DNA from: Stropharia rugosoannulata
Lineage: Eukaryota > Basidiomycota > Agaricomycetes > Agaricales > Strophariaceae
Reading direction: 5' to 3'
Assembly (NCBI GenBank): GCA_028532985.1
Contig: JANCIK010000010.1
Coordinates: forward strand, 2,480,001 to 2,544,000
DNA length: 64,000 bases
The notes beneath the pieces were generated by a model, which had not been told where the DNA came from, did not search any database, and was given only the letters and a program-made list of their open reading frames with translations. A program made the translations under genes and the position numbers. Shown one piece after another: positions 13,596 through 62,093 of the stretch. Every line of letters begins with the position of its first letter. The stretch's first letter is position 1.

Positions 13596-13630
13596 TGTAT
13601 ATACTGTAGTATAGAGACTGCCTTGGTCAC

Positions 13631-16858: not shown

Positions 16859-17062
16859 TGTTGAAAGCAGACTGCTTACAGGCGCAGAGAGCGAACCTAA
16901 CTCACACAGAGATGATGGTGGTAAGAGATTAAGAGGCATCTACACTAGTACATGCCTTATATACTACCATAAGCGAGATTAACTATATATGGAGCGTACT
17001 AATTATAGTACGCGATATCTAATCTACTGCTGATGGTCAGTCCAATCCTATGTAATCTAACA
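16859..17062 (-). repeat. Copia A2 5' LTR
   Basis: A complete 204-bp LTR in reverse orientation (TGTTGAAAGC...CTAACA on the plus strand). It shares with the LTR-A copies of the array a missing base in GGTCAGTCC (other LTRs read GGTCAAGTCC), which links A2 to the array. It adjoins leader B of unit 1 at 17062/17063, the same junction that repeats through the array. Confidence 0.93.
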
Positions 17063-17787
17063 GACCGATAGTCGAACACACGAAACCTGGGACTGCTAAG
17101 TTATAGAGGTAACGATGACGAACTCGGGGTGCAGCGACGATGACAAAATTGGAGTTGCAAACTCAAGGAGTTGAGCACTTGGGTACTAAAGTGTGAATTG
17201 CTCGACAACGATACAACCGATCGAGATGAGAGTTGGGGGCTCGATGTATCGATGATGAAGGAAGTGGTATGCTGAGTTGCAATGGAGTTGATGTCGATGT
17301 GAGGCCGCAGTGAGCTGAACAAATTTCGAGGTCCTAACTCGAGGAGTTGAGCACTCTGGTGAAGACCAGTTGATTGCGGAAGAACGACGGAGCGTAGTGA
17401 CGTGGCAGTCGGCAGGCAGCGAGGGGATCGTATGAAGAGTGGATCCTCGAAAGAACGGAGTGGGGCAACGATCAGGGAAGCCCTAAAAGCGCAAAAGAGC
17501 GGACAGCTCTGGGAAGCCCAAAGCTGAAGCAGTCTCTGGTGTGAAACCAAGAGAGTGCAGAGGACCTGTAAAGAAAAAGAGTGAATTGCACGAGGACCGA
17601 TTGAGCTGGCGGAACGAGAGTGGTACCAGAACAACGGTCGTGACGTGGCAGTCCTGCTCGTGAAACAACGAGGCGAAACGAGCGCGAATGAGTGTTAGGT
17701 TAAGTACCAAGCCACCCAGGTGAAAGGAGAGTGAGAATAAGAGAGTAGCAATGAGTAGGGACTGCTCAGAGTGCAGGGCTCATAATC
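17063..17787 (-). other. Copia B leader (unit 1 example)
   Basis: 725 bp between LTR-B and LTR-A. Its LTR-proximal part is homologous to leader A (shared CGGTCGTGACGTGGCAGT and GAGTGTTAGGTTAAGTACC), so B is a sister family of A. Right after LTR-B, on the minus strand, it has GATTATGAGCCCTGCACTC, a slightly degenerate version of the half-tRNA initiator-Met primer site. It holds two GAGTTGAGCACT motifs. A 177-codon minus-strand frame (MFWYHSRS...) is open but has no recognisable domain. No gag or pol of family B is present. Confidence 0.75.
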
Positions 17788-17990
17788 TGTTAAAAGCGGA
17801 TGCTTATAGGCACAGAGAGTGGCCCTAACTCAGGTGGGATGGTAGTGGTAATAGATTAAGAGGCATCTACACTAGTACATGCTATATATACTACCAGAAG
17901 CGAACTAAGCTAAATGTGGAGCAAACTAATTATAGTCCGCACTATCTAATCTTAACTGCTGATGGTGATGATTGCCTATGTAATCTAACA
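17788..17990 (-). repeat. LTR of copia B (unit 1 example)
   Basis: A 203-bp LTR with ends TGTTAAAAGC and ...ATCTAACA on the plus strand. It shares blocks with LTR-A (ATTAAGAGGCATCTACACTAGTACATGC region and the TG...CA ends) but has a different middle (GAAGCGAACTAAGC) and TATATATA as TATA box. Its outer end abuts copia A gag-pol at ACAAGCATGCC. The five bases next to it on the minus strand, CTTGT, would be the target duplication of B; the partner copy is not in the window. Confidence 0.9.
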
Positions 17991-18893
17991 ACAAGCATGC
18001 CAGTGACCAGACCCTTGGTGAGCAGCTTGTTGATGTGTGCAACGACGATGCCAGAGCTCTGCATTAAGGGGTAGAGTGGATGACAATGAAGCAGAGCAAC
18101 GGAGATTCGCAAATGGGACATGTGAGACCATCCAGAATGGCAGAGTGTGATGCATTGATAGTTGCAGTGAAGATGGTCTTGCCAGAGCAGTTGAAGTACA
18201 TCTTCTTTGCATCGATCTCAATCAGGATGCCAGAGCGCTTGGTGAGGTACAGACATGCAAGCAGGTTGTTGCACAACTTGGGGACATGCAGAACACGTTT
18301 AATGACTACTGCATCTGCTTTCTTGCCATTGATGACTGGATGGAACACCACATTGCCAACACCCTCAGAATAGACGATAGAATCATCTGCAAGACGAATT
18401 GGGACACAGTGAGGTTTGTACTCCACAATCCAGTCTTGATGAGGTGTCATATGGCTAGTTGCACCTGTATCTGCGAGCCAGTCGAAATCATTGCCTTGTG
18501 CGTCACCCGTAGCAAGTGCAGATGCAAAACCTGCATACTTCACGATTTGTGATGTCTCCTCTGCTGGGGCGAAACAGAGTGTGCCATTTGACCAACAGCT
18601 GCCAGAGTTGACCACATGCTAACTGGGTCATGCAGAATGTGAGCCAATTGTGATTTGAGCTCGTTCTGAACATGACTGTGGATGTAGCCAGCAGCAGCAG
18701 TCGACTTGCTTGTCCATATGTCGTGTGCCTCGATCTCAGCCATAGACGGCGTAAGAGAGAGCACAGGACGCTTGCATTCACCAGTAACCAGACGCCATAG
18801 CTCCTGAGAGCGTAACCATGCTTTCATGTTGCAAGACCAGAGTTGGTAGTTGGCAGTGCTCAGTTTGTCAAACTGAGGTGTTGCAAAAACTCA
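17991..18893 (-). pseudogene. Copia A gag-protease fragment cut by LTR-B (unit 1 example)
   Basis: The minus strand reads the short Gag, then protease with DWLADTGATSHM, then PICESPLLCF. There the frame leaves that of intact gag-pol, because of small changes and the 17-base deletion, and it ends before the LTR-B junction. What remains is a Gag-protease stub without integrase, RT or RNase H. Confidence 0.88.
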
Positions 18894-19609
18894 TGGTTGC
18901 AGGTGAAGTAAAGTGGTGATAGACGTGATATGGTATGAGGTGGTAGCTGAGAATGGCGCAAACGATGTGGCAAAGTTGCGAGGCGAGCTGGGCTGAAATG
19001 CACGAGCAGTGGGCAGGACACTTGCAGTATCACAATTAGGCCGAGTTGAGCACTTGCAGTAAAACGTCGATTGCACGAGCAGCAATGAACCGATTGACAC
19101 GAGACTGTGCAAGAGGATAGTTCAAAGATGCGGAACGTGTGTGATCGAGTTGTGCGAACGACAGTGACGATGTGCTAGTGCAGTGAACAAAACTGTTTGA
19201 GAATGTCAATTGGACAGAGTTGAGCACTCTGGTGAAGAACAGTGAATTGCGAGTGAACGGCTGAGCGTGACGACTTGTGAGTGGGCAAGTGACGAGAGGC
19301 ACGTGTAACGATGAGGTCCTCGAAAGAACCACGTGTTTCGACGATCAGGAAGCCCAGGAGCGAAGTCTCTGGTGAACACCAAGAGAGTTCTATTGACCTA
19401 AAACCAAAAGAAGCGGATTGCTCGATAACCGTGCAAGCTGGTGGAACGCAGGTGGTACCAGAACGACGGTCGTGACGTGGCAGTTGTGCTCACGAAAAAC
19501 AAGGCAAAACAAACAACGATGAGTGTTAGGTTAAGTACCAAGCCACTCAGTGGAGAAAGGACAGTAGAGTAGTGATAAGTAGGATGCTCAGAGCGCAGGG
19601 CTCATAACC

Positions 19610-19813
19610 TGTTGAAAGCAGACTGCTTACAGGCGCAGAGAGCGAACCTAACTCACACAGAGATGATGGTGGTAAGAGATTAAGAGGCATCTACACTAGT
19701 ACATGCCTTATATACTACCATAAGCGAGATTAACTATATATGGAGCGTACTAATTATAGTACGCGATATCTAATCTACTGCTGATGGTCAGTCCAATCCT
19801 ATGTAATCTAACA
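19610..19813 (-). repeat. LTR-A inside array (unit 1 example)
   Basis: Complete 204-bp LTR with TATA box and palindrome, in the same orientation as LTR-B. Its outer end joins leader B of the next unit (CTAACA then GACCGATAG). Since no 3' LTR or polypurine tract occurs in the array, every array LTR-A derives from a 5' LTR. Confidence 0.92.
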
Positions 19814-22565
19814 GACCGATAGTCGAACACACGAAACCTGGGACTGCTAAGTTATAGAGGTAACGATGACGAACTCGGGGTGCAGCGACGATGACAAAAT
19901 TGGAGTTGCAAACTCAAGGAGTTGAGCACTTGGGTACTAAAGTGTGAATTGCTCGACAACGATACAACCGATCGAGATGAGAGTTGGGGGCTCGATGTAT
20001 CGATGATGAAGGAAGTGGTATGCTGAGTTGCAATGGAGTTGATGTCGATGTGAGGCCGCAGTGAGCTGAACAAATTTCGAGGTCCTAACTCGAGGAGTTG
20101 AGCACTCTGGTGAAGACCGGTTGATTGCGGAAGAACGACGGAGCGTAGTGACGTGGCAGTCGGCAGGCAGCGAGGGGATCGTATGAAGAGTGGATCCTCG
20201 AAAGAACGGAGTGGGGCAACGATCAGGGAAGCCCTAAAAGCGCAAAAGAGCGGACAGCTCTGGGAAGCCCAAAGCTGAAGCAGTCTCTGGTGTGAAACCA
20301 AGAGAGTGCAGAGGACCTGTAAAGAAAAAGAGTGAATTGCACGAGGACCGATTGAGCTGGCGGAACGAGAGTGGTACCAGAACAACGGTCGTGGCGTGGC
20401 AGTCCTGCTCGTGAAACAACGAGGCGAAACGAGCGCGAATGAGTGTTAGGTTAAGTACCAAGCCACCCAGGTGAAAGGAGAGTGAGAATAAGAGAGAGTA
20501 GCAATGAGTAGGGACTGCTCAGAGTGCAGGGCTCATAATCTGTTAAAAGCGGATGCTTATAGGCACAGAGAGTGGCCCTAACTCAGGTGGGATGGTAGTG
20601 GTAATAGATTAAGAGGCATCTACACTAGTACATGCTATATATACTACCAGAAGCGAACTAAGCTAAATGTGGAGCAAACTAATTATAGTCCGCACTATCT
20701 AATCTTAACTGCTGATGGTGATGATTGCCTATGTAATCTAACAACAAGCATGCCAGTGACCAGACCCTTGGTGAGCAGCTTGTTGATGTGTGCAACGACG
20801 ATGCCAGAGCTCTGCATTAAGGGTAGAGTGGATGACAATGAAGCAGAGCAACGGAGATTCGCAAATGGGACATGTGAGACCATCCAGAATGGCAGAGTGT
20901 GATGCATTGATAGTTGCAGTGAAGATGGTCTTGCCAGAGCAGTTGAAGTACATCTTCTTTGCATCGATCTCAATCAGGATGCCAGAGCGCTTGGTGAGGT
21001 ACAGACATGCAAGCAGGTTGTTGCACAACTTGGGGACATGCAGAACACGTTTAATGACTACTGCATCTGCTTTCTTGCCATTGATGACTGGATGGAACAC
21101 CACATTGCCAACACCCTCAGAATAGACGATAGAATCATCTGCAAGACGAATTGGGACACAGTGAGGTTTGTACTCCACAATCCAGTCTTGATGAGGTGTC
21201 ATATGGCTAGTTGCACCTGTATCTGCGAGCCAGTCGAAATCATTGCCTTGTGCGTCACCCGTAGCAAGTGCAGATGCAAAACCTGCATACTTCACGATTT
21301 GTGATGTCTCCTCTGCTGGGGGCGAAACAGAGTGTGCCATTTGACCAACAGCTGCCAGAGTTGACCACATGCTAACTGGGTCATGCAGAATGTGAGCCAA
21401 TTGTGATTTGAGCTCGTTCTGAACATGACTGTGGATGTAGCCAGCAGCAGCAGTCGACTTGCTTGTCCATATGTCGTGTGCCTCGATCTCAGCCATAGAC
21501 GGCGTAAGAGAGAGCACAGGACGCTTGCATTCACCAGTAACCAGACGCCATAGCTCCTGAGAGCGTAACCATGCTTTCATGTTGCAAGACCAGAGTTGGT
21601 AGTTGGCAGTGCTCAGTTTGTCAAACTGAGGTGTTGCAAAAACTCATGGTTGCAGGTGAAGTAAAGTGGTGATAGACGTGATATGGTATGAGGTGGTAGC
21701 TGAGAATGGCGCAAACGATGTGGCAAAGTTGCGAGGCGAGCTGGGCTGAAATGCACGAGCAGTGGGCAGGACACTTGCAGTATCACAATTAGGCGAGTTG
21801 AGCACTAGCAGTAAAACGTCGATTGCACGAGCAGCAATGAACCGATTGACACGAGACTGTGCAAGAGGATAGTTCAAAGATGCGGAACGTGTGTGATCGA
21901 GTTGTGCGAACGACAGTGACGATGTGCTAGTGCAGTGAACAAAACTGTTTGAGAATGTCAATTGGACAGAGTTGAGCACTCTGGTGAAGAACAGTGAATT
22001 GCGAGTGAACGGCTGAGCGTGACGACTTGTGAGTGGGCAAGTGACGAGAGGCACGTGTAACGATGAGGTCCTCGAAAGAACCACGTGTTTCGACGATCAG
22101 GAAGCCCAGGAGCGAAGTCTCTGGTGAACACCAAGAGAGTTCTATTGACCTAAAACCAAAAGAAGCGGATTGCTCGATAACCGTGCAAGCTGGTGGAACG
22201 CAGGTGGTACCAGAACGACGGTCGTGACGTGGCAGTTGTGCTCACGAAAAACAAGGCAAAACAAACAACGATGAGTGTTAGGTTAAGTACCAAGCCACTC
22301 AGTGGAGAAAGGACAGTAGAGTAGTGATAAGTAGGATGCTCAGAGCGCAGGGCTCATAACCTGTTGAAAGCAGACTGCTTACAGGCGCAGAGAGCGAACC
22401 TAACTCACACAGAGATGATGGTGGTAAGAGATTAAGAGGCATCTACACTAGTACATGCCTTATATACTACCATAAGCGAGATTAACTATATATGGAGCGT
22501 ACTAATTATAGTACGCGATATCTAATCTACTGCTGATGGTCAGTCCAATCCTATGTAATCTAACA
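19814..22565 (-). repeat. Array unit 2
   Basis: LTR-B at 20541-20743, LTR-A at 22362-22565. Markers G and T. Private changes: GTGGCGTGG in leader B and CACTAGCAG in leader A. The gag-protease frame is open from an internal Met (21580 down to 20738, 280 codons) because the start-proximal A run is short. A GGG run near 20822 alters the tail. Confidence 0.93.
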
Positions 22566-25318
22566 GACCGATAGTCGAACACACGAAACCTGGGACTGCT
22601 AAGTTATAGAGGTAACGATGACGAACTCGGGGTGCAGCGACGATGACAAAATTGGAGTTGCAAACTCAAGGAGTTGAGCACTTGGGTACTAAAGTGTGAA
22701 TTGCTCGACAACGATACAACCGATCGAGATGAGAGTTGGGGCTCGATGTATCGATGATGAAGGAAGTGGTATGCTGAGTTGCAATGGAGTTGATGTCGAT
22801 GTGAGGCCGCAGTGAGCTGAACAAATTTCGAGGTCCTAACTCGAGGAGTTGAGCACTCTGGTGAAGACCGGTTGATTGCGGAAGAACGACGGAGCGTAGT
22901 GACGTGGCAGTCGGCAGGCAGCGAGGGGATCGTATGAAGAGTGGATCCTCGAAAGAACGGAGTGGGGCAACGATCAGGGAAGCCCTAAAAGCGCAAAAGA
23001 GCGGACAGCTCTGGGAAGCCCAAAGCTGAAGCAGTCTCTGGTGTGAAACCAAGAGAGTGCAGAGGACCTGTAAAGAAAAAGAGTGAATTGCACGAGGACC
23101 GATTGAGCTGGCGGAACGAGAGTGGTACCAGAACAACGGTCGTGACGTGGCAGTCCTGCTCGTGAAACAACGAGGCGAAACGAGCGCGAATGAGTGTTAG
23201 GTTAAGTACCAAGCCACCCAGGTGAAAGGAGAGTGAGAATAAGAGAGAGTAGCAATGAGTAGGGACTGCTCAGAGTGCAGGGCTCATAATCTGTTAAAAG
23301 CGGATGCTTATAGGCACAGAGAGTGGCCCTAACTCAGGTGGGATGGTAGTGGTAATAGATTAAGAGGCATCTACACTAGTACATGCTATATATACTACCA
23401 GAAGCGAACTAAGCTAAATGTGGAGCAAACTAATTATAGTCCGCACTATCTAATCTTAACTGCTGATGGTGATGATTGCCTATGTAATCTAACAACAAGC
23501 ATGCCAGTGACCAGACCCTTGGTGAGCAGCTTGTTGATGTGTGCAACGACGATGCCAGAGCTCTGCATTAAGGGGTAGAGTGGATGACAATGAAGCAGAG
23601 CAACGGAGATTCGCAAATGGGACATGTGAGACCATCCAGAATGGCAGAGTGTGATGCATTGATAGTTGCAGTGAAGATGGTCTTGCCAGAGCAGTTGAAG
23701 TACATCTTCTTTGCATCGATCTCAATCAGGATGCCAGAGCGCTTGGTGAGGTACAGACATGCAAGCAGGTTGTTGCACAACTTGGGGACATGCAGAACAC
23801 GTTTAATGACTACTGCATCTGCTTTCTTGCCATTGATGACTGGATGGAACACCACATTGCCAACACCCTCAGAATAGACGATAGAATCATCTGCAAGACG
23901 AATTGGGACACAGTGAGGTTTGTACTCCACAATCCAGTCTTGATGAGGTGTCATATGGCTAGTTGCACCTGTATCTGCGAGCCAGTCGAAATCATTGCCT
24001 TGTGCGTCACCCGTAGCAAGTGCAGATGCAAAACCTGCATACTTCACGATTTGTGATGTCTCCTCTGCTGGGGCGAAACAGAGTGTGCCATTTGACCAAC
24101 AGCTGCCAGAGTTGACCACATGCTAACTGGGTCATGCAGAATGTGAGCCAATTGTGATTTGAGCTCGTTCTGAACATGACTGTGGATGTAGCCAGCAGCA
24201 GCAGTCGACTTGCTTGTCCATATGTCGTGTGCCTCGATCTCAGCCATAGACGGCGTAGAGAGAGCACAGGACGCTGCATTCACCAGTAACCAGACGCCAT
24301 AGCTCCTGAGAGCGTAACCATGCTTTCATGTTGCAAGACCAGAGTTGGTAGTTGGCAGTGCTCAGTTTGTCAAACTGAGGTGTTGCAAAGAAACTCATGG
24401 TTGCAGGTGAAGTAAAGTGGTGATAGACGTGATATGGTATGAGGTGGTAGCTGAGAATGGCGCAAACGATGTGGCAAAGTTGCGAGGCGAGCTGGGCTGA
24501 AATGCACGAGCAGTGGGCAGGACACTTGCAGTATCACAATTAGGCGAGTTGAGCACTTGCAGTAAAACGTCGATTGCACGAGCAGCAATGAACCGATTGA
24601 CACGAGACTGTGCAAGAGGATAGTTCAAAGATGCGGAACGTGTGTGATCGAGTTGTGCGAACGACAGTGACGATGTGCTAGTGCAGTGAACAAAACTGTT
24701 TGAGAATGTCAATTGGACAGAGTTGAGCACTCTGGTGAAGAACAGTGAATTGCGAGTGAACGGCTGAGCGTGACGACTTGTGAGTGGGCAAGTGACGAGA
24801 GGCACGTGTAACGATGAGGTCCTCGAAAGAACCACGTGTTTCGACGATCAGGAAGCCCAGGGAGCGAAGTCTCTGGTGAACACCAAGAGAGTTCTATTGA
24901 CCTAAAACCAAAAGAAGCGGATTGCTCGATAACCGTGCAAGCTGGTGGAACGCAGGTGGTACCAGAACGACGGTCGTGACGTGGCAGTTGTGCTCACGAA
25001 AAAACAAGGCAAAACAAACAACGATGAGTGTTAGGTTAAGTACCAAGCCACTCAGTGGAGAAAGGACAGTAGAGTAGTGATAAGTAGGATGCTCAGAGCG
25101 CAGGGCTCATAACCTGTTGAAAGCAGACTGCTTACAGGCGCAGAGAGCGAACCTAACTCACACAGAGATGATGGTGGTAAGAGATTAAGAGGCATCTACA
25201 CTAGTACATGCCTTATATACTACCATAAGCGAGATTAACTATATATGGAGCGTACTAATTATAGTACGCGATATCTAATCTACTGCTGATGGTCAGTCCA
25301 ATCCTATGTAATCTAACA
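22566..25318 (-). repeat. Array unit 3
   Basis: LTR-B at 23292-23494, LTR-A at 25115-25318. Markers G and T. The gag frame is broken by single-base losses near 24257 and 24274 and by the four-G run near 24070. The TAGGCGAG variant (one C fewer) occurs in leader A. Confidence 0.93.
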
Positions 25319-28070
25319 GACCGATAGTCGAACACACGAAACCTGGGACTGCTAAGTTATAGAGGTAACGATGACGAACTCGGGGTGCAGCGACGATGAC
25401 AAAATTGGAGTTGCAAACTCAAGGAGTTGAGCACTTGGGTACTAAAGTGTGAATTGCTCGACAACGATACAACCGATCGAGATGAGAGTTGGGGCTCGAT
25501 GTATCGATGATGAAGGAAGTGGTATGCTGAGTTGCAATGGAGTTGATGTCGATGTGAGGCCGCAGTGAGCTGAACAAATTTCGAGGTCCTAACTCGAGGA
25601 GTTGAGCACTCTGGTGAAGACCGGTTGATTGCGGAAGAACGACGGAGCGTAGTGACGTGGCAGTCGGCAGGCAGCGAGGGGATCGTATGAAGAGTGGATC
25701 CTCGAAAGAACGGAGTGGGGCAACGATCAGGGAAGCCCTAAAAGCGCAAAAGAGCGGACAGCTCTGGGAAGCCCAAAGCTGAAGCAGTCTCTGGTGTGAA
25801 ACCAAGAGAGTGCAGAGGACCTGTAAAGAAAAAGAGTGAATTGCACGAGGACCGATTGAGCTGGCGGAACGAGAGTGGTACCAGAACAACGGTCGTGACG
25901 TGGCAGTCCTGCTCGTGAAACAACGAGGCGAAACGAGCGCGAATGAGTGTTAGGTTAAGTACCAAGCCACCCAGGTGAAAGGAGAGTGAGAATAAGAGAG
26001 AGTAGCAATGAGTAGGGACTGCTCAGAGTGCAGGGCTCATAATCTGTTAAAAGCGGATGCTTATAGGCACAGAGAGTGGCCCTAACTCAGGTGGGATGGT
26101 AGTGGTAATAGATTAAGAGGCATCTACACTAGTACATGCTATATATACTACCAGAAGCGAACTAAGCTAAATGTGGAGCAAACTAATTATAGTCCGCACT
26201 ATCTAATCTTAACTGCTGATGGTGATGATTGCCTATGTAATCTAACAACAAGCATGCCAGTGACCAGACCCTTGGTGAGCAGCTTGTTGATGTGTGCAAC
26301 GACGATGCCAGAGCTCTGCATTAATGGGTAGAGTGGATGACAATGAAGCAGAGCAACGGAGATTCGCAAATGGGACATGTGAGACCATCCAGAATGGCAG
26401 AGTGTGATGCATTGATAGTTGCAGTGAAGATGGTCTTGCCAGAGCAGTTGAAGTACATCTTCTTTGCATCGATCTCAATCAGGATGCCAGAGCGCTTGGT
26501 GAGGTACAGACATGCAAGCAGGTTGTTGCACAACTTGGGGACATGCAGAACACGTTTAATGACTACTGCATCTGCTTTCTTGCCATTGATGACTGGATGG
26601 AACACCACATTGCCAACACCCTCAGAATAGACGATAGAATCATCTGCAAGACGAATTGGGACACAGTGAGGTTTGTACTCCACAATCCAGTCTTGATGAG
26701 GTGTCATATGGCTAGTTGCACCTGTATCTGCGAGCCAGTCGAAATCATTGCCTTGTGCGTCACCCGTAGCAAGTGCAGATGCAAAACCTGCATACTTCAC
26801 GATTTGTGATGTCTCCTCTGCTGGGGGCGAAACAGAGTGTGCCATTTGACCAACAGCTGCCAGAGTTGACCACATGCTAACTGGGTCATGCAGAATGTGA
26901 GCCAATTGTGATTTGAGCTCGTTCTGAACATGACTGTGGATGTAGCCAGCAGCAGCAGTCGACTTGCTTGTCCATATGTCGTGTGCCTCGATCTCAGCCA
27001 TAGACGGCGTAAGAGAGAGCACAGGACGCTTGCATTCACCAGTAACCAGACGCCATAGCTCCTGAGAGCGTAACCATGCTTTCATGTTGCAAGACCAGAG
27101 TTGGTAGTTGGCAGTGCTCAGTTTGTCAAACTGAGGTGTTGCAAAAACTCATGGTTGCAGGTGAAGTAAAGTGGTGATAGACGTGATATGGTATGAGGTG
27201 GTAGCTGAGAATGGCGCAAACGATGTGGCAAAGTTGCGAGGCGAGCTGGGCTGAAATGCACGAGCAGTGGGCAGGACACTTGCAGTATCACAATTAGGCC
27301 GAGTTGAGCACTTGCAGTAAACGTCGATTGCACGAGCAGCAATGAACCGATTGACACGAGACTGTGCAAGAGGATAGTTCAAAGATGCGGAACGTGTGTG
27401 ATCGAGTTGTGCGAACGACAGTGACGATGTGCTAGTGCAGTGAACAAAACTGTTTGAGAATGTCAATTGGACAGAGTTGAGCACTCTGGTGAAGAACAGT
27501 GAATTGCGAGTGAACGGCTGAGCGTGACGACTTGTGAGTGGGCAAGTGACGAGAGGCACGTGTAACGATGAGGTCCTCGAAAGAACCACGTGTTTCGACG
27601 ATCAGGAAGCCCAGGAGCGAAGTCTCTGGTGAACACCAAGAGAGTTCTATTGACCTAAAACCAAAAGAAGCGGATTGCTCGATAACCGTGCAAGCTGGTG
27701 GAACGCAGGTGGTACCAGAACGACGGTCGTGACGTGGCAGTTGTGCTCACGAAAAACAAGGCAAAACAAACAACGATGAGTGTTAGGTTAAGTACCAAGC
27801 CACTCAGTGGAGAAAGGACAGTAGAGTAGTGATAAGTAGGATGCTCAGAGCGCAGGGCTCATAACCTGTTGAAAGCAGACTGCTTACAGGCGCAGAGAGC
27901 GAACCTAACTCACACAGAGATGATGGTGGTAAGAGATTAAGAGGCATCTACACTAGTACATGCCTTATATACTACCATAAGCGAGATTAACTATATATGG
28001 AGCGTACTAATTATAGTACGCGATATCTAATCTACTGCTGATGGTCAGTCCAATCCTATGTAATCTAACA
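25319..28070 (-). repeat. Array unit 4
   Basis: LTR-B at 26045-26247, LTR-A at 27867-28070. Markers G and T; last unit from the left with GACCGATAG. Private change ATTAATGGG near 26320. The protease-containing frame is 254 codons (27085-26321). Confidence 0.93.
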
Positions 28071-50112: not shown

Positions 50113-52866
50113 GACCAATAGTCGAACACACGAAACCTGGGACTGCTAAGTTATAGAGGTAACGATGACGAACTCGGGTGCAGCGACGATGACAAAATTG
50201 GAGTTGCAAACTCAAGGAGTTGAGCACTTGGGTACTAAAGTGTGAATTGCTCGACAACGATACAACCGATCGAGATGAGAGTTGGGGGCTCGATGTATCG
50301 ATGATGAAGGAAGTGGTATGCTGAGTTGCAATGGAGTTGATGTCGATGTGAGGCCGCAGTGAGCTGAACAAATTTCGAGGTCCTAACTCGAGGAGTTGAG
50401 CACTCTGGTGAAGACCGGTTGATTGCGGAAGAACGACGGAGCGTAGTGACGTGGCAGTCGGCAGGCAGCGAGGGGATCGTATGAAGAGTGGACCCTCGAA
50501 AGAACGGAGTGGGGCAACGATCAGGAAGCCCTAAAAGCGCAAAAGAGCGGACAGCTCTGGGAAGCCCAAAGCTGAAGCAGTCTCTGGTGTGAAACCAAGA
50601 GAGTGCAGAGGACCTGTAAAGAAAAAGAGTGAATTGCACGAGGACCGATTGAGCTGGCGGAACGAGAGTGGTACCAGAACAACGGTCGTGACGTGGCAGT
50701 CCTGCTCGTGAAACAACGAGGCGAAACGAGCGAATGAGTGTTAGGTTAAGTACCAAGCCACCCAGGTGAAAGGAGAGTGAGAATAAGAGAGAGTAGCAAT
50801 GAGTAGGGACTGCTCAGAGTGCAGGGCTCATAATCTGTTAAAAGCGGATGCTTATAGGCACAGAGAGTGGCCCTAACTCAGGTGGGATGGTAGTGGTAAT
50901 AGATTAAGAGGCATCTACACTAGTACATGCTATATATACTACCAGAAGCGAACTAAGCTAAATGTGGAGCAAACTAATTATAGTCCGCACTATCTAATCT
51001 TAACTGCTGATGGTGATGATTGCCTATGTAATCTAACAACAAGCATGCCAGTGACCAGACCCTTGGTGAGCAGCTTGTTGATGTGTGCAACGACGATGCC
51101 AGAGCTCTGCATTAAGGGGTAGAGTGGATGACAATGAAGCAGAGCAACGGAGATTCGCAAATGGGACATGTGAGACCATCCAGAATGGCAGAGTGTGATG
51201 CATTGATAGTTGCAGTGAAGATGGTCTTGCCAGAGCAGTTGAAGTACATCTTCTTTGCATCGATCTCAATCAGGATGCCAGAGCGCTTGGTGAGGTACAG
51301 ACATGCAAGCAGGTTGTTGCACAACTTGGGGACATGCAGAACACGTTTAATGACTACTGCATCTGCTTTCTTGCCATTGATGACTGGATGGAACACCACA
51401 TTGCCAACACCCTCAGAATAGACGATAGAATCATCTGCAAGACGAATTGGGACACAGTGAGGTTTGTACTCCACAATCCAGTCTTGATGAGGTGTCATAT
51501 GGCTAGTTGCACCTGTATCTGCGAGCCAGTCGAAATCATTGCCTTGTGCGTCACCCGTAGCAAGTGCAGATGCAAAACCTGCATACTTCACGATTTGTGA
51601 TGTCTCCTCTGCTGGGGCGAAACAGAGTGTGCCATTTGACCAACAGCTGCCAGAGTTGACCACATGCTAACTGGGTCATGCAGAATGTGAGCCAATTGTG
51701 ATTTGAGCTCGTTCTGAACATGACTGTGGATGTAGCCAGCAGCAGCAGTCGACTTGCTTGTCCATATGTCGTGTGCCTCGATCTCAGCCATAGACGGCGT
51801 AAGAGAGAGCACAGGACGCTTGCATTCACCAGTAACCAGACGCCATAGCTCCTGAGAGCGTAACCATGCTTTCATGTTGCAAGACCAGAGTTGGTAGTTG
51901 GCAGTGCTCAGTTTGTCAAACTGAGGTGTTGCAAAGAAACTCATGGTTGCAGGTGAAGTAAAGTGGTGATAGACGTGATATGGTATGAGGTGGTAGCTGA
52001 GAATGGCGCAAACGATGTGGCAAAGTTGCGAGGCGAGCTGGGCTGAAATGCACGAGCAGTGGGCAGGACACTTGCAGTATCACAATTAGGCCGAGTTGAG
52101 CACTTGCAGTAAAACGTCGATTGCACGAGCAGCAATGAACCGATTGACACGAGACTGTGCAAGAGGATAGTTCAAAGATGCGGAACGTGTGTGATCGAGT
52201 TGTGCGAACGACAGTGACGATGTGCTAGTGCAGTGAACAAAACTGTTTGAGAATGTCAATTGGACAGAGTTGAGCACTCTGGTGAAGAACAGTGAATTGC
52301 GAGTGAACGGCTGAGCGTGACGACTTGTGAGTGGGCAAGTGACGAGAGGCACGTGTAACGATGAGGTCCTCGAAAGAACCACGTGTTTCGACGATCAGGG
52401 AAGCCCAGGGAGCGAAGTCTCTGGTGAACACCAAGAGAGTTCTATTGACCTAAAACCAAAAGAAGCGGATTGCTCGATAACCGTGCAAGCTGGTGGAACG
52501 CAGGTGGTACCAGAACGACGGTCGTGACGTGGCAGTTGTGCTCACGAAAAAACAAGGCAAAACAAACAACGATGAGTGTTAGGTTAAGTACCAAGCCACT
52601 CAGTGGAGAAAGGACAGTAGAGTAGTGATAAGTAGGATGCTCAGAGCGCAGGGCTCATAACCTGTTGAAAGCAGACTGCTTACAGGCGCAGAGAGCGAAC
52701 CTAACTCACACAGAGATGATGGTGGTAAGAGATTAAGAGGCATCTACACTAGTACATGCCTTATATACTACCATAAGCGAGATTAACTATATATGGAGCG
52801 TACTAATTATAGTACGCGATATCTAATCTACTGCTGATGGTCAGTCCAATCCTATGTAATCTAACA
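50113..52866 (-). repeat. Array unit 13
   Basis: LTR-B at 50836-51038, LTR-A at 52663-52866. Markers A and C. Two bases (one CG/GC repeat) are lost in the GAGCGAATG stretch of leader B, and one G in CTCGGGTGC. Four-G run near 51615 splits gag from protease. Confidence 0.93.
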
Positions 52867-55622
52867 GACCAATAGTCGAACACACGAAACCTGGGACTGC
52901 TAAGTTATAGAGGTAACGATGACGAACTCGGGGTGCAGCGACGATGACAAAATTGGAGTTGCAAACTCAAGGAGTTGAGCACTTGGGTACTAAAGTGTGA
53001 ATTGCTCGACAACGATACAACCGATCGAGATGAGAGTTGGGGGCTCGATGTATCGATGATGAAGGAAGTGGTATGCTGAGTTGCAATGGAGTTGATGTCG
53101 ATGTGAGGCCGCAGTGAGCTGAACAAATTTCGAGGTCCTAACTCGAGGAGTTGAGCACTCTGGTGAAGACCGGTTGATTGCGGAAGAACGACGGAGCGTA
53201 GTGACGTGGCAGTCGGCAGGCAGCGAGGGGATCGTATGAAGAGTGGACCCTCGAAAGAACGGAGTGGGGCAACGATCAGGGAAGCCCTAAAAGCGCAAAA
53301 GAGCGGACAGCTCTGGGAAGCCCAAAGCTGAAGCAGTCTCTGGTGTGAAACCAAGAGAGTGCAGAGGACCTGTAAAGAAAAAGAGTGAATTGCACGAGGA
53401 CCGATTGAGCTGGCGGAACGAGAGTGGTACCAGAACAACGGTCGTGACGTGGCAGTCCTGCTCGTGAAACAACGAGGCGAAACGAGCGCGAATGAGTGTT
53501 AGGTTAAGTACCAAGCCACCCAGGTGAAAGGAGAGTGAGAATAAGAGAGAGTAGCAATGAGTAGGGACTGCTCAGAGTGCAGGGCTCATAATCTGTTAAA
53601 AGCGGATGCTTATAGGCACAGAGAGTGGCCCTAACTCAGGTGGGATGGTAGTGGTAATAGATTAAGAGGCATCTACACTAGTACATGCTATATATACTAC
53701 CAGAAGCGAACTAAGCTAAATGTGGAGCAAACTAATTATAGTCCGCACTATCTAATCTTAACTGCTGATGGTGATGATTGCCTATGTAATCTAACAACAA
53801 GCATGCCAGTGACCAGACCCTTGGTGAGCAGCTTGTTGATGTGTGCAACGACGATGCCAGAGCTCTGCATTAAGGGGTAGAGTGGATGACAATGAAGCAG
53901 AGCAACGGAGATTCGCAAATGGGACATGTGAGACCATCCAGAATGGCAGAGTGTGATGCATTGATAGTTGCAGTGAAGATGGTCTTGCCAGAGCAGTTGA
54001 AGTACATCTTCTTTGCATCGATCTCAATCAGGATGCCAGAGCGCTTGGTGAGGTACAGACATGCAAGCAGGTTGTTGCACAACTTGGGGACATGCAGAAC
54101 ACGTTTAATGACTACTGCATCTGCTTTCTTGCCATTGATGACTGGATGGAACACCACATTGCCAACACCCTCAGAATAGACGATAGAATCATCTGCAAGA
54201 CGAATTGGGACACAGTGAGGTTTGTACTCCACAATCCAGTCTTGATGAGGTGTCATATGGCTAGTTGCACCTGTATCTGCGAGCCAGTCGAAATCATTGC
54301 CTTGTGCGTCACCCGTAGCAAGTGCAGATGCAAAACCTGCATACTTCACGATTTGTGATGTCTCCTCTGCTGGGGGCGAAACAGAGTGTGCCATTTGACC
54401 AACAGCTGCCAGAGTTGACCACATGCTAACTGGGTCATGCAGAATGTGAGCCAATTGTGATTTGAGCTCGTTCTGAACATGACTGTGGATGTAGCCAGCA
54501 GCAGCAGTCGACTTGCTTGTCCATATGTCGTGTGCCTCGATCTCAGCCATAGACGGCGTAGAGAGAGCACAGGACGCTTGCATTCACCAGTAACCAGACG
54601 CCATAGCTCCTGAGAGCGTAACCATGCTTTCATGTTGCAAGACCAGAGTTGGTAGTTGGCAGTGCTCAGTTTGTCAAACTGAGGTGTTGCAAAGAAACTC
54701 ATGGTTGCAGGTGAAGTAAAGTGGTGATAGACGTGATATGGTATGAGGTGGTAGCTGAGAATGGCGCAAACGATGTGGCAAAGTTGCGAGGCGAGCTGGG
54801 CTGAAATGCACGAGCAGTGGGCAGGACACTTGCAGTATCACAATTAGGCGAGTTGAGCACTTGCAGTAAAACGTCGATTGCACGAGCAGCAATGAACCGA
54901 TTGACACGAGACTGTGCAAGAGGATAGTTCAAAGATGCGGAACGTGTGTGATCGAGTTGTGCGAACGACAGTGACGATGTGCTAGTGCAGTGAACAAAAC
55001 TGTTTGAGAATGTCAATTGGACAGAGTTGAGCACTCTGGTGAAGAACAGTGAATTGCGAGTGAACGGCTGAGCGTGACGACTTGTGAGTGGGCAAGTGAC
55101 GAGAGGCACGTGTAACGATGAGGTCCTCGAAAGAACCACGTGTTTCGACGATCAGGGAAGCCCAGGAGCGAAGTCTCTGGTGAACACCAAGAGAGTTCTA
55201 TTGACCTAAAACCAAAAGAAGCGGATTGCTCGATAACCGTGCAAGCTGGTGGAACGCAGGTGGTACCAGAACGACGGTCGTGACGTGGCAGTTGTGCTCA
55301 CGAAAAAACAAGGCAAAACAAACAACGATGAGTGTTAGGTTAAGTACCAAGCCACTCGGTGGAGAAAGGACAGTAGAGTAGTGATAAGTAGGATGCTCAG
55401 AGCGCAGGGCTCATAACCTGTTGAAAGCAGACTGCTTACAGGCGCAGAGAGCGAACCTAACTCACACAGAGATGATGGTGGTAAGAGATTAAGAGGCATC
55501 TACACTAGTACATGCCTTATATACTACCATAAGCGAGATTAACTATATATGGAGCGTACTAATTATAGTACGCGATATCTAATCTACTGCTGATGGTCAG
55601 TCCAATCCTATGTAATCTAACA
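52867..55622 (-). repeat. Array unit 14
   Basis: LTR-B at 53594-53796, LTR-A at 55419-55622. Markers A and C. Private substitution CCACTCGGTGG in leader A near 55359. A single-base loss near 54560 shifts the gag start; the protease frame spans 237 codons. Confidence 0.93.
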
Positions 55623-58381
55623 GACCAATAGTCGAACACACGAAACCTGGGACTGCTAAGTTATAGAGGTAACGATGACGAACTCGGGGTGCAGCGACGA
55701 TGACAAAATTGGAGTTGCAAACTCAAGGAGTTGAGCACTTGGGTACTAAAGTGTGAATTGCTCGACAACGATACAACCGATCGAGATGAGAGTTGGGGGC
55801 TCGATGTATCGATGATGAAGGAAGTGGTATGCTGAGTTGCAATGGAGTTGATGTCGATGTGAGGCCGCAGTGAGCTGAACAAATTTCGAGGTCCTAACTC
55901 GAGGAGTTGAGCACTCTGGTGAAGACCGGTTGATTGCGGAAGAACGACGGAGCGTAGTGACGTGGCAGTCGGCAGGCAGCGAGGGGATCGTATGAAGAGT
56001 GGACCCTCGAAAGAACGGAGTGGGGCAACGATCAGGGAAGCCCTAAAAGCGCAAAAGAGCGGACAGCTCTGGGAAGCCCAAAGCTGAAGCAGTCTCTGGT
56101 GTGAAACCAAGAGAGTGCAGAGGACCTGTAAAGAAAAAGAGTGAATTGCACGAGGACCGATTGAGCTGGCGGAACGAGAGTGGTACCAGAACAACGGTCG
56201 TGACGTGGCAGTCCTGCTCGTGAAACAACGAGGCGAAACGAGCGCGAATGAGTGTTAGGTTAAGTACCAAGCCACCCAGGTGAAAGGAGAGTGAGAATAA
56301 GAGAGAGTAGCAATGAGTAGGGACTGCTCAGAGTGCAGGGCTCATAATCTGTTAAAAGCGGATGCTTATAGGCACAGAGAGTGGCCCTAACTCAGGTGGG
56401 ATGGTAGTGGTAATAGATTAAGAGGCATCTACACTAGTACATGCTATATATACTACCAGAAGCGAACTAAGCTAAATGTGGAGCAAACTAATTATAGTCC
56501 GCACTATCTAATCTTAACTGCTGATGGTGATGATTGCCTATGTAATCTAACAACAAGCATGCCAGTGACCAGACCCTTGGTGAGCAGCTTGTTGATGTGT
56601 GCAACGACGATGCCAGAGCTCTGCATTAAGGGGTAGAGTGGATGACAATGAAGCAGAGCAACGGAGATTCGCAAATGGGACATGTGAGACCATCCAGAAT
56701 GGCAGAGTGTGATGCATTGATAGTTGCAGTGAAGATGGTCTTGCCAGAGCAGTTGAAGTACATCTTCTTTGCATCGATCTCAATCAGGATGCCAGAGCGC
56801 TTGGTGAGGTACAGACATGCAAGCAGGTTGTTGCACAACTTGGGGACATGCAGAACACGTTTAATGACTACTGCATCTGCTTTCTTGCCATTGATGACTG
56901 GATGGAACACCACATTGCCAACACCCTCAGAATAGACGATAGAATCATCTGCAAGACGAATTGGGACACAGTGAGGTTTGTACTCCACAATCCAGTCTTG
57001 ATGAGGTGTCATATGGCTAGTTGCACCTGTATCTGCGAGCCAGTCGAAATCATTGCCTTGTGCGTCACCCGTAGCAAGTGCAGATGCAAAACCTGCATAC
57101 TTCACGATTTGTGATGTCTCCTCTGCTGGGGGCGAAACAGAGTGTGCCATTTGACCAACAGCTGCCAGAGTTGACCACATGCTAACTGGGTCATGCAGAA
57201 TGTGAGCCAATTGTGATTTGAGCTCGTTCTGAACATGACTGTGGATGTAGCCAGCAGCAGCAGTCGACTTGCTTGTCCATATGTCGTGTGCCTCGATCTC
57301 AGCCATAGACGGCGTAAGAGAGAGCACAGGACGCTTGCATTCACCAGTAACCAGACGCCATAGCTCCTGAGAGCGTAACCATGCTTTCATGTTGCAAGAC
57401 CAGAGTTGGTAGTTGGCAGTGCTCAGTTTGTCAAACTGAGGTGTTGCAAAGAAACTCATGGTTGCAGGTGAAGTAAAGTGGTGATAGACGTGATATGGTA
57501 TGAGGTGGTAGCTGAGAATGGCGCAAACGATGTGGCAAAGTTGCGAGGCGAGCTGGGCTGAAATGCACGAGCAGTGGGCAGGACACTTGCAGTATCACAA
57601 TTAGGCCGAGTTGAGCACTTGCAGTAAAACGTCGATTGCACGAGCAGCAATGAACCGATTGACACGAGACTGTGCAAGAGGATAGTTCAAAGATGCGGAA
57701 CGTGTGTGATCGAGTTGTGCGAACGACAGTGACGATGTGCTAGTGCAGTGAACAAAACTGTTTGAGAATGTCAATTGGACAGAGTTGAGCACTCTGGTGA
57801 AGAACAGTGAATTGCGAGTGAACGGCTGAGCGTGACGACTTGTGAGTGGGCAAGTGACGAGAGGCACGTGTAACGATGAGGTCCTCGAAAGAACCACGTG
57901 TTTCGACGATCAGGGAAGCCCAGGGAGCGAAGTCTCTGGTGAACACCAAGAGAGTTCTATTGACCTAAAACCAAAAGAAGCGGATTGCTCGATAACCGTG
58001 CAAGCTGGTGGAACGCAGGTGGTACCAGAACGACGGTCGTGACGTGGCAGTTGTGCTCACGAAAAAACAAGGCAAAACAAACAACGATGAGTGTTAGGTT
58101 AAGTACCAAGCCACTCAGTGGAGAAAGGACAGTAGAGTAGTGATAAGTAGGATGCTCAGAGCGCAGGGCTCATAACCTGTTGAAAGCAGACTGCTTACAG
58201 GCGCAGAGAGCGAACCTAACTCACACAGAGATGATGGTGGTAAGAGATTAAGAGGCATCTACACTAGTACATGCCTTATATACTACCATAAGCGAGATTA
58301 ACTATATATGGAGCGTACTAATTATAGTACGCGATATCTAATCTACTGCTGATGGTCAGTCCAATCCTATGTAATCTAACA
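55623..58381 (-). repeat. Array unit 15
   Basis: LTR-B at 56350-56552, LTR-A at 58178-58381. Markers A and C. Gag-protease frame intact. Last complete unit on the right. Confidence 0.93.
56626..57459 (-). CDS. Gag-protease stub, intact 277-codon frame (unit 15)
   Basis: Same product as the frame at 31825-32658. Confidence 0.6.
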   Translation of the reverse strand: MSFFATPQFDKLSTANYQLWSCNMKAWLRSQELWRLVTGECKRPVLSLTPSMAEIEAHDIWTSKSTAAAGYIHSHVQNELKSQLAHILHDPVSMWSTLAAVGQMAHSVSPPAEETSQIVKYAGFASALATGDAQGNDFDWLADTGATSHMTPHQDWIVEYKPHCVPIRLADDSIVYSEGVGNVVFHPVINGKKADAVVIKRVLHVPKLCNNLLACLYLTKRSGILIEIDAKKMYFNCSGKTIFTATINASHSAILDGLTCPICESPLLCFIVIHSTP

Positions 58382-60684
58382 GACCAATAGTCGAACACAC
58401 GAAACCTGGGACTGCTAAGTTATAGAGGTAACGATGACGAACTCGGGGTGCAGCGACGATGACAAAATTGGAGTTGCAAACTCAAGGAGTTGAGCACTTG
58501 GGTACTAAAGTGTGAATTGCTCGACAACGATACAACCGATCGAGATGAGAGTTGGGGGCTCGATGTATCGATGATGAAGGAAGTGGTATGCTGAGTTGCA
58601 ATGGAGTTGATGTCGATGTGAGGCCGCAGTGAGCTGAACAAATTTCGAGGTCCTAACTCGAGGAGTTGAGCACTCTGGTGAAGACCGGTTGATTGCGGAA
58701 GAACGACGGAGCGTAGTGACGTGGCAGTCGGCAGGCAGCGAGGGATCGTATGAAGAGTGGACCCTCGAAAGAACGGAGTGGGGCAACGATCAGGAAGCCC
58801 TAAAAGCGCAAAAGAGCGGACAGCTCTGGGAAGCCCAAAGCTGAAGCAGTCTCTGGTGTGAAACCAAGAGAGTGCAGAGGACCTGTAAAGAAAAAGAGTG
58901 AATTGCACGAGGACCGATTGAGCTGGCGGAACGAGAGTGGTACCAGAACAACGGTCGTGACGTGGCAGTCCTGCTCGTGAAACAACGAGGCGAAACGAGC
59001 GCGAATGAGTGTTAGGTTAAGTACCAAGCCACCCAGGTGAAAGGAGAGTGAGAATAAGAGAGAGTAGCAATGAGTAGGGACTGCTCAGAGTGCAGGGCTC
59101 ATAATCTGTTAAAAGCGGATGCTTATAGGCACAGAGAGTGGCCCTAACTCAGGTGGGATGGTAGTGGTAATAGATTAAGAGGCATCTACACTAGTACATG
59201 CTATATATACTACCAGAAGCGAACTAAGCTAAATGTGGAGCAAACTAATTATAGTCCGCACTATCTAATCTTAACTGCTGATGGTGATGATTGCCTATGT
59301 AATCTAACAACAAGCATGCCAGTGACCAGACCCTTGGTGAGCAGCTTGTTGATGTGTGCAACGACGATGCCAGAGCTCTGCATTAAGGGGTAGAGTGGAT
59401 GACAATGAAGCAGAGCAACGGAGATTCGCAAATGGGACATGTGAGACCATCCAGAATGGCAGAGTGTGATGCATTGATAGTTGCAGTGAAGATGGTCTTG
59501 CCAGAGCAGTTGAAGTACATCTTCTTTGCATCGATCTCAATCAGGATGCCAGAGCGCTTGGTGAGGTACAGACATGCAAGCAGGTTGTTGCACAACTTGG
59601 GGACATGCAGAACACGTTTAATGACTACTGCATCTGCTTTCTTGCCATTGATGACTGGATGGAACACCACATTGCCAACACCCTCAGAATAGACGATAGA
59701 ATCATCTGCAAGACGAATTGGGACACAGTGAGGTTTGTACTCCACAATCCAGTCTTGATGAGGTGTCATATGGCTAGTTGCACCTGTATCTGCGAGCCAG
59801 TCGAAATCATTGCCTTGTGCGTCACCCGTAGCAAGTGCAGATGCAAAACCTGCATACTTCACGATTTGTGATGTCTCCTCTGCTGGGGCGAAACAGAGTG
59901 TGCCATTTGACCAACAGCTGCCAGAGTTGACCACATGCTAACTGGGTCATGCAGAATGTGAGCCAATTGTGATTTGAGCTCGTTCTGAACATGACTGTGG
60001 ATGTAGCCAGCAGCAGCAGTCGACTTGCTTGTCCATATGTCGTGTGCCTCGATCTCAGCCATAGACGGCGTAAGAGAGAGCACAGGACGCTTGCATTCAC
60101 CAGTAACCAGACGCCATAGCTCCTGAGAGCGTAACCATGCTTTCATGTTGCAAGACCAGAGTTGGTAGTTGGCAGTGCTCAGTTTGTCAAACTGAGGTGT
60201 TGCAAAGAAACTCATGGTTGCAGGTGAAGTAAAGTGGTGATAGACGTGATATGGTATGAGGTGGTAGCTGAGAATGGCGCAAACGATGTGGCAAAGTTGC
60301 GAGGCGAGCTGGGCTGAAATGCACGAGCAGTGGGCAGGACACTTGCAGTATCACAATTAGGCCGAGTTGAGCACTTGCAGTAAAACGTCGATTGCACGAG
60401 CAGCAATGAACCGATTGACACGAGACTGTGCAAGAGGATAGTTCAAAGATGCGGAACGTGTGTGATCGAGTTGTGCGAACGACAGTGACGATGTGCTAGT
60501 GCAGTGAACAAAACTGTTTGAGAATGTCAATTGGACAGAGTTGAGCACTCTGGTGAAGAACAGTGTATTGCGAGTGAACGGCTGAGCGTGACAACTTGTG
60601 AGTGGGCAAGTGACGAGAGGCACGTGTAACGATGAGGTCCTCGAAAGAACCACGTGTTTCGACGATCAGGGAAGCCCAGGGAGC
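58382..60684 (-). repeat. Array unit 16 (partial, right edge)
   Basis: Contains leader B, LTR-B (59107-59309), gag-protease and most of leader A, then stops inside leader A at GGGAGCG. Here the sequence switches to forward-strand RT, so LTR-A is missing. Private changes GTGTATTG and GACAACTTG lie near the break. In the nested-insertion model this is the remnant of the outer A copy (A1). Confidence 0.9.
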
Positions 60685-61811: not shown

Positions 61812-61846
61812 TGTATATACTGTAGTATAGAGACTGCCTTGGTCAT

Positions 61847-61853
61847 GGGGGAG
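61847..61853 (+). other. Polypurine tract
   Basis: GGGGGAG directly before the TG of the following LTR, as in the element ending at 13842. Confidence 0.85.
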
Positions 61854-62057
61854 TGTTAGATTACATGGATTGGACTTGACCATCAGCAGTAGATTAGATA
61901 TTGCATACTATATTTAGTATGCTCCATATATAGTTAATCTCGCTTATGGTAGTATATAAGGCATGTACTAGTGTAGATGCCTCTTGATCTCTTACCACCA
62001 TCATCTCTGTGTGAGTTAGGTTTGCTCTCTGCATCCGTAAGCAGTCTGCTTTCTACA
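61854..62057 (+). repeat. Copia A 3' LTR
   Basis: A 204-bp LTR. Relative to 2306-2509 it has lost several CpG (TCGCG to TTGCA, TACGC to TATGC) and ends TTCTACA. It is joined directly to reverse-strand gag start sequence, so the LTR end is precise. Confidence 0.92.
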
Positions 62058-62093
62058 CAGTTTGTCAAACTGAGGTGTTGCAAAGAAACTCAT
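62058..62093 (-). pseudogene. Copia A gag start remnant
   Basis: Only the first 12 codons (MSFFATPQFDKL) remain on the minus strand, from ATG 62093 to the LTR junction. Confidence 0.75.

What the first reader, a model, noticed from the sequence alone, without database searches (positions are those of the whole stretch)
17063..60684. A 43.6-kb satellite made from two nested copia retrotransposon 5' ends
Fifteen full 2.75-kb units and one partial unit, each LTR-B / leader B / LTR-A / leader A / gag-protease stub, run head to tail. Tandem arrays of this length built from LTR-element pieces are known mainly from plant centromeric satellites; I am not aware of a described fungal equivalent with this architecture. 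The shared private deletion and identical junctions show amplification of a single founder.
Basis: partly seen in the sequence, partly recalled or inferred. Interest (0 to 1): 0.9.

Follow-up and report, generated by a model that had tools for sequence, protein, structure and literature searches.

The report
Copia-built satellite at a mushroom centromere
In a fungus that is likely a gilled mushroom, a 43.6-kb stretch is built of 15 nearly identical 2.75-kb copies of the front ends of two copia retrotransposons, and evenly spaced arrays of other copia pieces occur on at least nine more chromosomes, each in the one copia-rich spot that is likely that chromosome's centromere.

Summary
The array is real in the assembly: 15 complete head-to-tail units (2751-2759 bp, 17063-58381), a 2304-bp partial unit to 60685, and an array-type copia 5' end continuing left to 15395. 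All pieces read on the minus strand. Substitutions between units average 2.1 per 2755 bp; most other differences are 1-2-bp indels that I read as sequencing error.

The object is wider than reported. All located copia markers fall in one interval (at most about 121 kb) on each of 13 chromosome-sized contigs, and ten of these show constant-period arrays (2.75-7.8 kb). I read unit anatomy on five. Five of five junctions between an LTR and foreign copia sequence lie exactly at an LTR end; uninterrupted target sequence exists elsewhere for the four sites checked.

Best reading: copia elements inserted into each other, which created direct repeats, and these likely expanded by unequal recombination inside probable centromeres. 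Kilobase-sized LTR-derived centromere arrays are known in Solanum, and copia-specific centromere clusters in Agaricus and Ganoderma; my searches found no fungal report combining both. No CENP-A, Hi-C or raw-read data were available: centromere identity and copy number are inferred. Host unnamed, probably Agaricales.

The parts
17063..58381 (-). 15 complete tandem units U1-U15; first bases 17063, 19814, 22566, 25319, 28071, 30822, 33580, 36334, 39093, 41848, 44605, 47361, 50113, 52867, 55623
   Evidence: junction motifs and alignment
58382..60685 (-). partial unit (2304 bp), cut inside the A part
   Evidence: 2 substitutions against U15 and against U6
17063..17787 (-). leader B of U1 (725 bp), abutting LTR-A at 17062/17063
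17788..17990 (-). LTR-B of U1 (203 bp)
   Evidence: isolated 203-bp match elsewhere; junction motif
17991..19609 (-). gag-protease stub and leader A of U1, with the shared 17-bp deletion
   Evidence: Pfam on the matching frame of U2 at 20738-21580
19610..19813 (-). LTR-A of U1 (204 bp)
   Evidence: isolated 204-bp matches elsewhere; junction motif
15395..17062 (-). array-type A 5' end at the left edge (LTR-A, leader A, part of gag), 0 substitutions against U1, U4, U9, U15
13843..15394 (-). body of a different A element (rest of gag-protease, integrase) joined at a homologous breakpoint near 15395
11052..13842 (+). oppositely oriented copia 3' half (integrase SH3, RT) ending in an LTR at 13638-13842, bordering the A body
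60686..62057 (+). copia 3' end with LTR at the right edge of the array, 93.8% identical to 12470-13842
62058..63016 (-). further A leader and LTR-A, about 92-93% identical to the units
2301..4807 (+). oppositely oriented A copy (96% to 14564-17067); shows the uninterrupted gag target

Best explanation
The 43.6-kb array is a nearly uniform satellite made of copia retrotransposon 5' ends inside the one copia cluster of its chromosome, which is likely the centromere, and it was likely born when copia elements inserted into one another and the resulting direct repeats then expanded by unequal recombination. Shown by the calls: the unit and its junctions at exact LTR ends, uninterrupted target sequence elsewhere, one copia cluster on each of 13 chromosome-sized contigs, constant-period arrays on ten of them, and a homologous breakpoint at the left edge. 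Inferred: element A integrated into the leader of an element B, and a second B integrated into A's gag-protease region. That leaves two B 5' ends (928 bp each) in the same orientation one unit apart. A misaligned exchange between them yields two units with both junctions, and further exchanges lengthen the array. The same rule would give 5'-end units (C10, C12), 3'-end units (C9) and LTR-sharing full-length units (C8), and all three were seen. That the arrays carry CENP-A or serve the kinetochore is predicted and untested.
For: 16 identical LTR-A/leader-B and 16 LTR-B/gag junctions. Five of five LTR/foreign junctions in the arrays read (two on C10, one each on C12, C9, C7) lie exactly at an LTR end, with uninterrupted target sequence in other copies for the four sites checked. 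Copia pol marker: 137 places, 100 listed, all in one interval per contig; LTR marker: 182 places, 100 listed, likewise; all 48 and 50 matches lie in the same intervals. Constant spacing on C1, C5-C9, C11-C13. Breakpoint: 0 substitutions in 15395-17062 but 18-20 in 15221-15394. Block-wise alleles with the outgroup state at the left end. One repeat cluster per chromosome with an exclusive copia family is the published pattern of putative Agaricus bisporus centromeres (passages).
Against: No CENP-A, Hi-C, methylation or read data. Only one side of each nested insertion is kept, so no target-site duplication could be shown. U8 breaks the allele block at column 382, and U12 has four clustered substitutions without a donor among the copies held. 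One of four outside B copies (86% identical) does not carry the U1-U4 state at column 5. The C7 unit has an inverted breakpoint that is not at an LTR end. C2, C3 and C4 show no array in the places listed, and 37 and 82 marker places were not listed. Unit anatomy of C1, C5, C6, C11 and C13 was not read.
Confidence: 0.7

Rival explanations
1. The founder unit arose by nested insertion, but the array grew from extrachromosomal circles (rolling-circle replication or circle reinsertion) rather than by unequal crossing-over.
For: Very low substitution divergence between units, mean 2.1 per 2755 bp; the C8 unit has one LTR per element, the form a one-LTR circle would give.
Against: Column 5 and column 382 alleles lie in blocks along the array with the outgroup state at the left end, which points to more than one growth step.
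Confidence: 0.18
2. The unit number is an assembly artefact: a short true array was inflated, or a longer one collapsed.
For: Most unit differences are 1-2-bp indels; an error-rich contig C20 holds four more unit junctions; no reads could be examined.
Against: Substitutions are ordered along the array rather than random, both edges are distinct, and constant-period arrays recur on nine other chromosomes.
Confidence: 0.1
3. The copia clusters are not centromeres but other heterochromatin where these elements accumulate; the arrays have no tie to chromosome segregation.
For: No functional data; some Agaricomycetes are described with other centromere make-up, such as LINE-rich, LTR-poor Tricholoma matsutake (as cited in the Ganoderma paper, passages).
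Against: One cluster on each of 13 chromosome-sized contigs, none at contig ends; the same pattern supports centromere calls in Agaricus bisporus and, with Hi-C, in Ganoderma leucocontextum.
Confidence: 0.12
4. The founder chimera was made by template switching during reverse transcription and then integrated as one piece.
For: LTR-A and LTR-B belong to related subfamilies, about 80% identical, which could be co-packaged.
Against: Foreign sequence abuts the exact outer LTR end in five of five junctions; by general knowledge that end exists only in finished cDNA and is joined to foreign DNA by integrase.
Confidence: 0.04

Closest known systems
Large repeat clusters (putative centromeres) of Agaricus bisporus with exclusive family Copia-28 (PMC7473861; passages seen)
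   Same: One large repeat cluster per chromosome; one copia family and LINE families exclusive to the clusters; truncation by elements jumping into the same or other families; AT content as the rest of the genome, so no RIP.
   Different: The word 'tandem' does not occur in its main text; no array of copia pieces appears in the passages seen.
GlCEN427 copia of Ganoderma leucocontextum (PMC10817607; section 3.3 read, other passages seen)
   Same: Copia LTR confined to Hi-C-predicted centromeres of 13 chromosomes.
   Different: 1 to 8 LTR copies per chromosome as paired and solo LTRs; section 3.3 describes no tandem array. LTR about 427 bp, here 203-204 bp.
Kilobase-sized LTR-derived centromere arrays of Solanum verrucosum and potato (PMC13232507; section on centromeres read)
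   Same: Some centromeres are single arrays of 1.7-4.1-kb LTR-derived units, with different units on different chromosomes and no higher-order repeats.
   Different: Plant; Ty3-type (CRM, Tekay) elements; megabase scale; CENH3 mapped. Here Ty1/copia, tens of kilobases, no CENP-A data, and founder junctions still readable.
CoLT-rich centromeres of Phytophthora sojae (PMC7082073; passages seen)
   Same: A copia family with about 90% of its copies in CENP-A-bound centromeres.
   Different: Oomycete; 'tandem' does not occur in its main text.
Cassandra LTR-sharing tandem arrays in plants (PMC7215508; passages seen)
   Same: LTR-internal-LTR-internal repeats, as in the C8 unit here.
   Different: Small non-autonomous elements without coding domains; the C10 unit has two LTRs and two truncated internal parts.
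Ogre-derived satellites of Lathyrus sativus (PMC7004042; passages seen)
   Same: Satellites from LTR elements whose arrays expanded mainly at primary constrictions.
   Different: They grew from short tandem repeats inside the element's 3' untranslated region, not from nested insertions.

Membership tests
Satellite DNA | Long head-to-tail array of near-identical units | tested here: met
   15 full units and a partial, mean 2.1 substitutions per 2755 bp
Satellite DNA | Localised rather than dispersed | tested here: met
   unit junction pattern: 20 places, 16 on C10 and 4 on C20
Copia-specific fungal centromere cluster (Agaricus or Ganoderma type) | One copia cluster per chromosome | tested here: met
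   13 of 13 chromosome-sized contigs, from 100 of 137 and 100 of 182 listed places
Copia-specific fungal centromere cluster (Agaricus or Ganoderma type) | Element absent from the rest of the genome | tested here: inconclusive
   no listed place lies outside the clusters, but 37 and 82 places were not listed
Copia-specific fungal centromere cluster (Agaricus or Ganoderma type) | Hi-C contacts, methylation or CENP-A at the cluster | not testable with these tools
Solanum-type kilobase centromere arrays | LTR-derived units of kilobase size | tested here: met
   2.75-kb unit with copia domains; 3.4-5.5-kb units on C7, C8, C9, C12
Solanum-type kilobase centromere arrays | Different unit on each chromosome | tested here: inconclusive
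   five anatomies read and all different, but C5, C8 and C13 periods of 5.49-5.55 kb could be one form
Solanum-type kilobase centromere arrays | CENH3 (CENP-A) binding | not testable with these tools
   no ChIP data
Cassandra-like LTR-sharing arrays | Unit is one LTR plus one internal domain | tested here: not met
   C10 unit has two LTRs and two truncated internal parts; the C8 unit does have this form
Ty1/copia element pieces | Copia gag and domain order gag, protease, integrase, RT | tested here: met
   window frames with Pol_BBD, gag_pre-integrase, rve, SH3 and RVT_2

The most novel reading that the evidence does not exclude
A mushroom in which most centromeres rest on their own retrotransposon-made satellite: one centromere-targeted copia family nests into itself, and where each insertion lands sets the unit that the chromosome then amplifies. 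The founder junctions are still readable, so satellite birth is caught in the act, many times over in one genome.
Probability: 0.5. Interest if true: 0.85.

Novelty: new variant of a known kind. Interest (0 to 1): 0.72.

Why it matters
How centromere satellites begin is an open question, because mature arrays have usually lost the traces of their origin. Here one genome likely holds about ten young arrays of different form with exact insertion junctions, uninterrupted target sites and a recombination breakpoint preserved. That makes a concrete rule testable: centromere-seeking elements insert into themselves, and the insertion point sets the satellite unit. It would also extend the Solanum type of centromere to fungi with small genomes, where chromatin and long-read tests are cheap.

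Tried and rejected
Oomycete host. TTTAGGG telomere repeats (211 overlapping pattern places; 0 for four TTAGGG repeats) first suggested an oomycete with CoLT centromeres. Rejected: the named best relatives of the copia protein and of a LINE protein from the C12 flank are Agaricomycetes, mostly Agaricales, and the heptamer is printed for Coprinellus disseminatus (passages) and Rhizoctonia cerealis (passages). Rhizoctonia was considered as host; neither list of named relatives shown supports it.

Species naming failed. The eukaryote SSU model did not complete; the bacterial SSU and 5.8S models gave 0 matches.

Gene conversion of U12 from another A copy: its four clustered substitutions were compared with the A copies held; none carries the set. 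RIP: indices are not RIP-like (TpA/ApT 0.77 in the array and 0.75-0.77 in the flanks). Tandem Repeats Finder cannot see this period.

In my first, returned version of this report I gave 17 scanned flank ORFs and called the C9 junction a protease junction; recounting gave 18 ORFs, and the joint lies in the gag-pre-integrase region (frame).

Full report
OBSERVATION. The window is bases 2,480,001-2,544,000 of contig C10 in an unnamed 47.97-Mb genome of 20 contigs. Self-comparison shows a ladder of repeats in steps of about 2755 bp between 15278 and 60685. Junction motifs bound 15 complete units (2751-2759 bp) and one partial unit of 2304 bp. On the minus strand each unit is LTR-A (204 bp), leader A, a gag-protease stub, LTR-B (203 bp) and 725 bp of leader B. 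Pfam finds Pol_BBD in the stub above its cut-off and copia gag below it. LTR-A and LTR-B are about 80% identical, LTR plus leader about 72%, so A and B are related subfamilies. The units lack 17 bp that the left-hand A copy has.

UNIT VARIATION. Of 2759 alignment columns 33 vary; most are 1-2-bp indels, many in homopolymers or short repeats, which I read as residual sequencing error. Counting substitutions only, two units differ on average at 2.1 positions of 2755. Full-length A copies elsewhere among those held are 94.0-95.5% identical to unit A. Two substitutions form blocks: column 5 (U1-U4 against U5-U15) and column 382 (U1-U5 and U8 against the rest). Of the B copies held outside the array, 3 of 4 carry the U1-U4 state at column 5 (the fourth is only 86% identical), and 4 of 5 carry the U1 state at column 382 (the same divergent copy has a gap). 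The left end therefore looks older and the derived alleles spread on the right. U8 breaks the block, and U12 has four clustered substitutions with no donor among held copies; both stay unexplained.

EDGES. On the left, 15395-17062 has no substitution against U1, U4, U9 or U15, while 15221-15394 has 18 to 20 plus the 17-bp gap. This is a homologous breakpoint that joins an array copy to the body of a different A element, which runs on to 13843. On the right the array stops at 60685 against a copia 3' end (60686-62057), followed by another A leader and LTR (62058-63016) that is 92.3-93.0% identical to the units.

GENOME CONTEXT. A 26-base copia pol marker (up to 2 mismatches) has 137 places and 0 in the reversed control. 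The 100 listed, all exact, lie in one interval per contig on C1, C3-C13 and on the unplaced contigs C18 and C19. A 29-base LTR marker has 182 exact places, control 0. The 100 listed run from C1 to C10, include three on C2, and again lie in one interval per contig. The 48 and 50 matches lie in the same intervals. The widest, on C5, is about 121 kb when all four calls are pooled. So each of C1-C13 carries one cluster. I take C1-C13 as chromosomes because contigs appear ordered by size: telomere places put C1 at 5.04 Mb or more, C12 is 2.91 Mb and C20 12.8 kb; lengths of C3, C11 and C13 were not read. The 37 and 82 unlisted places were not located.

MANY ARRAYS. The pol marker has constant steps on C1 (7803 twice), C5 (about 5.49 kb), C6 (6.87), C7 (5.40), C8 (5.51), C9 (3.41, then 7.32), C11 (4.97), C12 (3.54), C13 (5.55), C18 (5.39) and C19 (5.54). 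With C10 that is ten of 13 chromosomes; C1 rests on three places only. C2, C3 and C4 show none in the listed places. I read anatomy on five. C10: two nested 5' ends. C12: eight full units and a partial of an A element from LTR into the reverse transcriptase. C8: a whole element with one LTR per unit. C9: from the gag-pre-integrase region to the 3' LTR (domain position). C7: a B element from LTR-B on, plus an inverted pol piece. C7, C8 and C9 were each read for one unit and 0.5-0.6 kb more.

JUNCTIONS. Five joints link an LTR to foreign copia sequence, and all five lie exactly at an LTR end: leader B/LTR-A, gag-protease stub/LTR-B, RT/LTR-A on C12, LTR/gag-pre-integrase region on C9, and inverted pol/LTR-B on C7. 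Uninterrupted target sequence is present in other copies for the first four; the C7 site was not checked. On C12 and C9 the compared copies differ from the array by single bases near the joint. C8 has no such joint: its LTR follows a G-rich tract as expected of a polypurine tract. The inverted breakpoint inside the C7 unit is not at an LTR end. Exact outer LTR ends against foreign DNA are what integration makes (general knowledge). No target-site duplication could be shown, because only one side of each insertion survives.

MECHANISM (inferred). A inserts into B's leader, and a second B inserts into A. The two B 5' ends, 928 bp each, are direct repeats one unit apart; a misaligned exchange between them yields two units with both junctions, and more exchanges lengthen the array. 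Self-nesting would give 5'-end units when 5' repeats recombine (C10, C12), 3'-end units when 3' repeats do (C9), and LTR-sharing units when LTRs do (C8). The first C12 unit carries seven private substitutions in its first 301 columns, as expected if it is the outer element of the nest. Growth from circles is not excluded but fits block-wise alleles less well.

PROBABLE CENTROMERE. One repeat cluster per chromosome with an exclusive copia family and LINEs is what was called putative centromeres in Agaricus bisporus (passages). A copia LTR confined to Hi-C-predicted centromeres was reported in Ganoderma leucocontextum (section 3.3). Agrocybe chaxingu has copia and LINE concentrations at predicted centromeres (passages). 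Over C10:2,430,001-2,604,000 I listed 28 ORFs of at least 250 aa outside the array, 21 of them not inside the window. Of 18 of these 21 scanned by Pfam (one only in part), 8 had a retroelement domain, one a Tet_JBP domain and 9 none; 3 were not scanned, one because one search failed. Transposons are prominent, but host genes are not excluded. There are no functional data.

HOST. Named best relatives of the copia protein are Agaricomycetes (59% identity over 392 residues to an Agaricus bisporus protein). Those of a LINE protein in the C12 flank include Candolleomyces, Cyclocybe, Psilocybe and Coprinellus. Telomeres are TTTAGGG, as printed for Coprinellus disseminatus (passages). I place the host in Agaricales with moderate confidence.

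NOVELTY. Kilobase LTR-derived centromere arrays that differ between chromosomes are known in Solanum (section read). In ten searches of the open-access library (one search returned no paper) I saw no fungal report of such arrays. I read passages or sections of only some of the papers listed; subscription papers and preprints are not held. It is a new variant of a known kind, with unusually legible origins.

Noticed in passing
window 5253-11026 (minus strand): A LINE-like pair of long frames (1303 aa with endonuclease and RT domains, 621 aa without a Pfam match) lies beside the array; a frame with the same Pfam domains lies in the C12 flank (L035:2850-5492).
   Followed up: partly
L025:4784-5557 (+), with a cysteine-rich minus-strand frame at C10:2582882-2585176: A Tet_JBP oxygenase domain lies near a frame that by eye resembles KDZ transposases (recalled, not tested); such pairs are recalled from mushrooms and bear on DNA methylation at these sites.
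   Followed up: no
contig C20 (L039, first 6000 of 12,776 bp): Error-rich copies of the C10 units (one about 98.5%, one about 92% identical with many gaps); probably unpolished reads of the same array or a second nucleus, so the true array may be longer.
   Followed up: partly
window 47361-50112 (unit U12): Four substitutions within 104 columns in one unit, with no donor among the A copies held.
   Followed up: yes
C6:2595126-2630424: Six pairs of LTR markers about 911 bp apart in the same orientation, repeating every 6.87 kb: two LTRs per unit as on C10.
   Followed up: no
C12:1457254-1460786: The first unit of the C12 array has seven private substitutions in its first 301 columns, as an outer element of the original nest would.
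   Followed up: partly
C7:1688216-1709841 and C18:4254-36599: Nearly the same period (5.40 and 5.39 kb) on C7 and the unplaced contig C18, and likewise C13 (5.55) and C19 (5.54): the unplaced contigs may be missing parts of those arrays.
   Followed up: no
contig ends (C1, C2, C4-C9 among the places listed): Seven-base telomere repeat TTTAGGG instead of TTAGGG in a probable Agaricales genome.
   Followed up: partly
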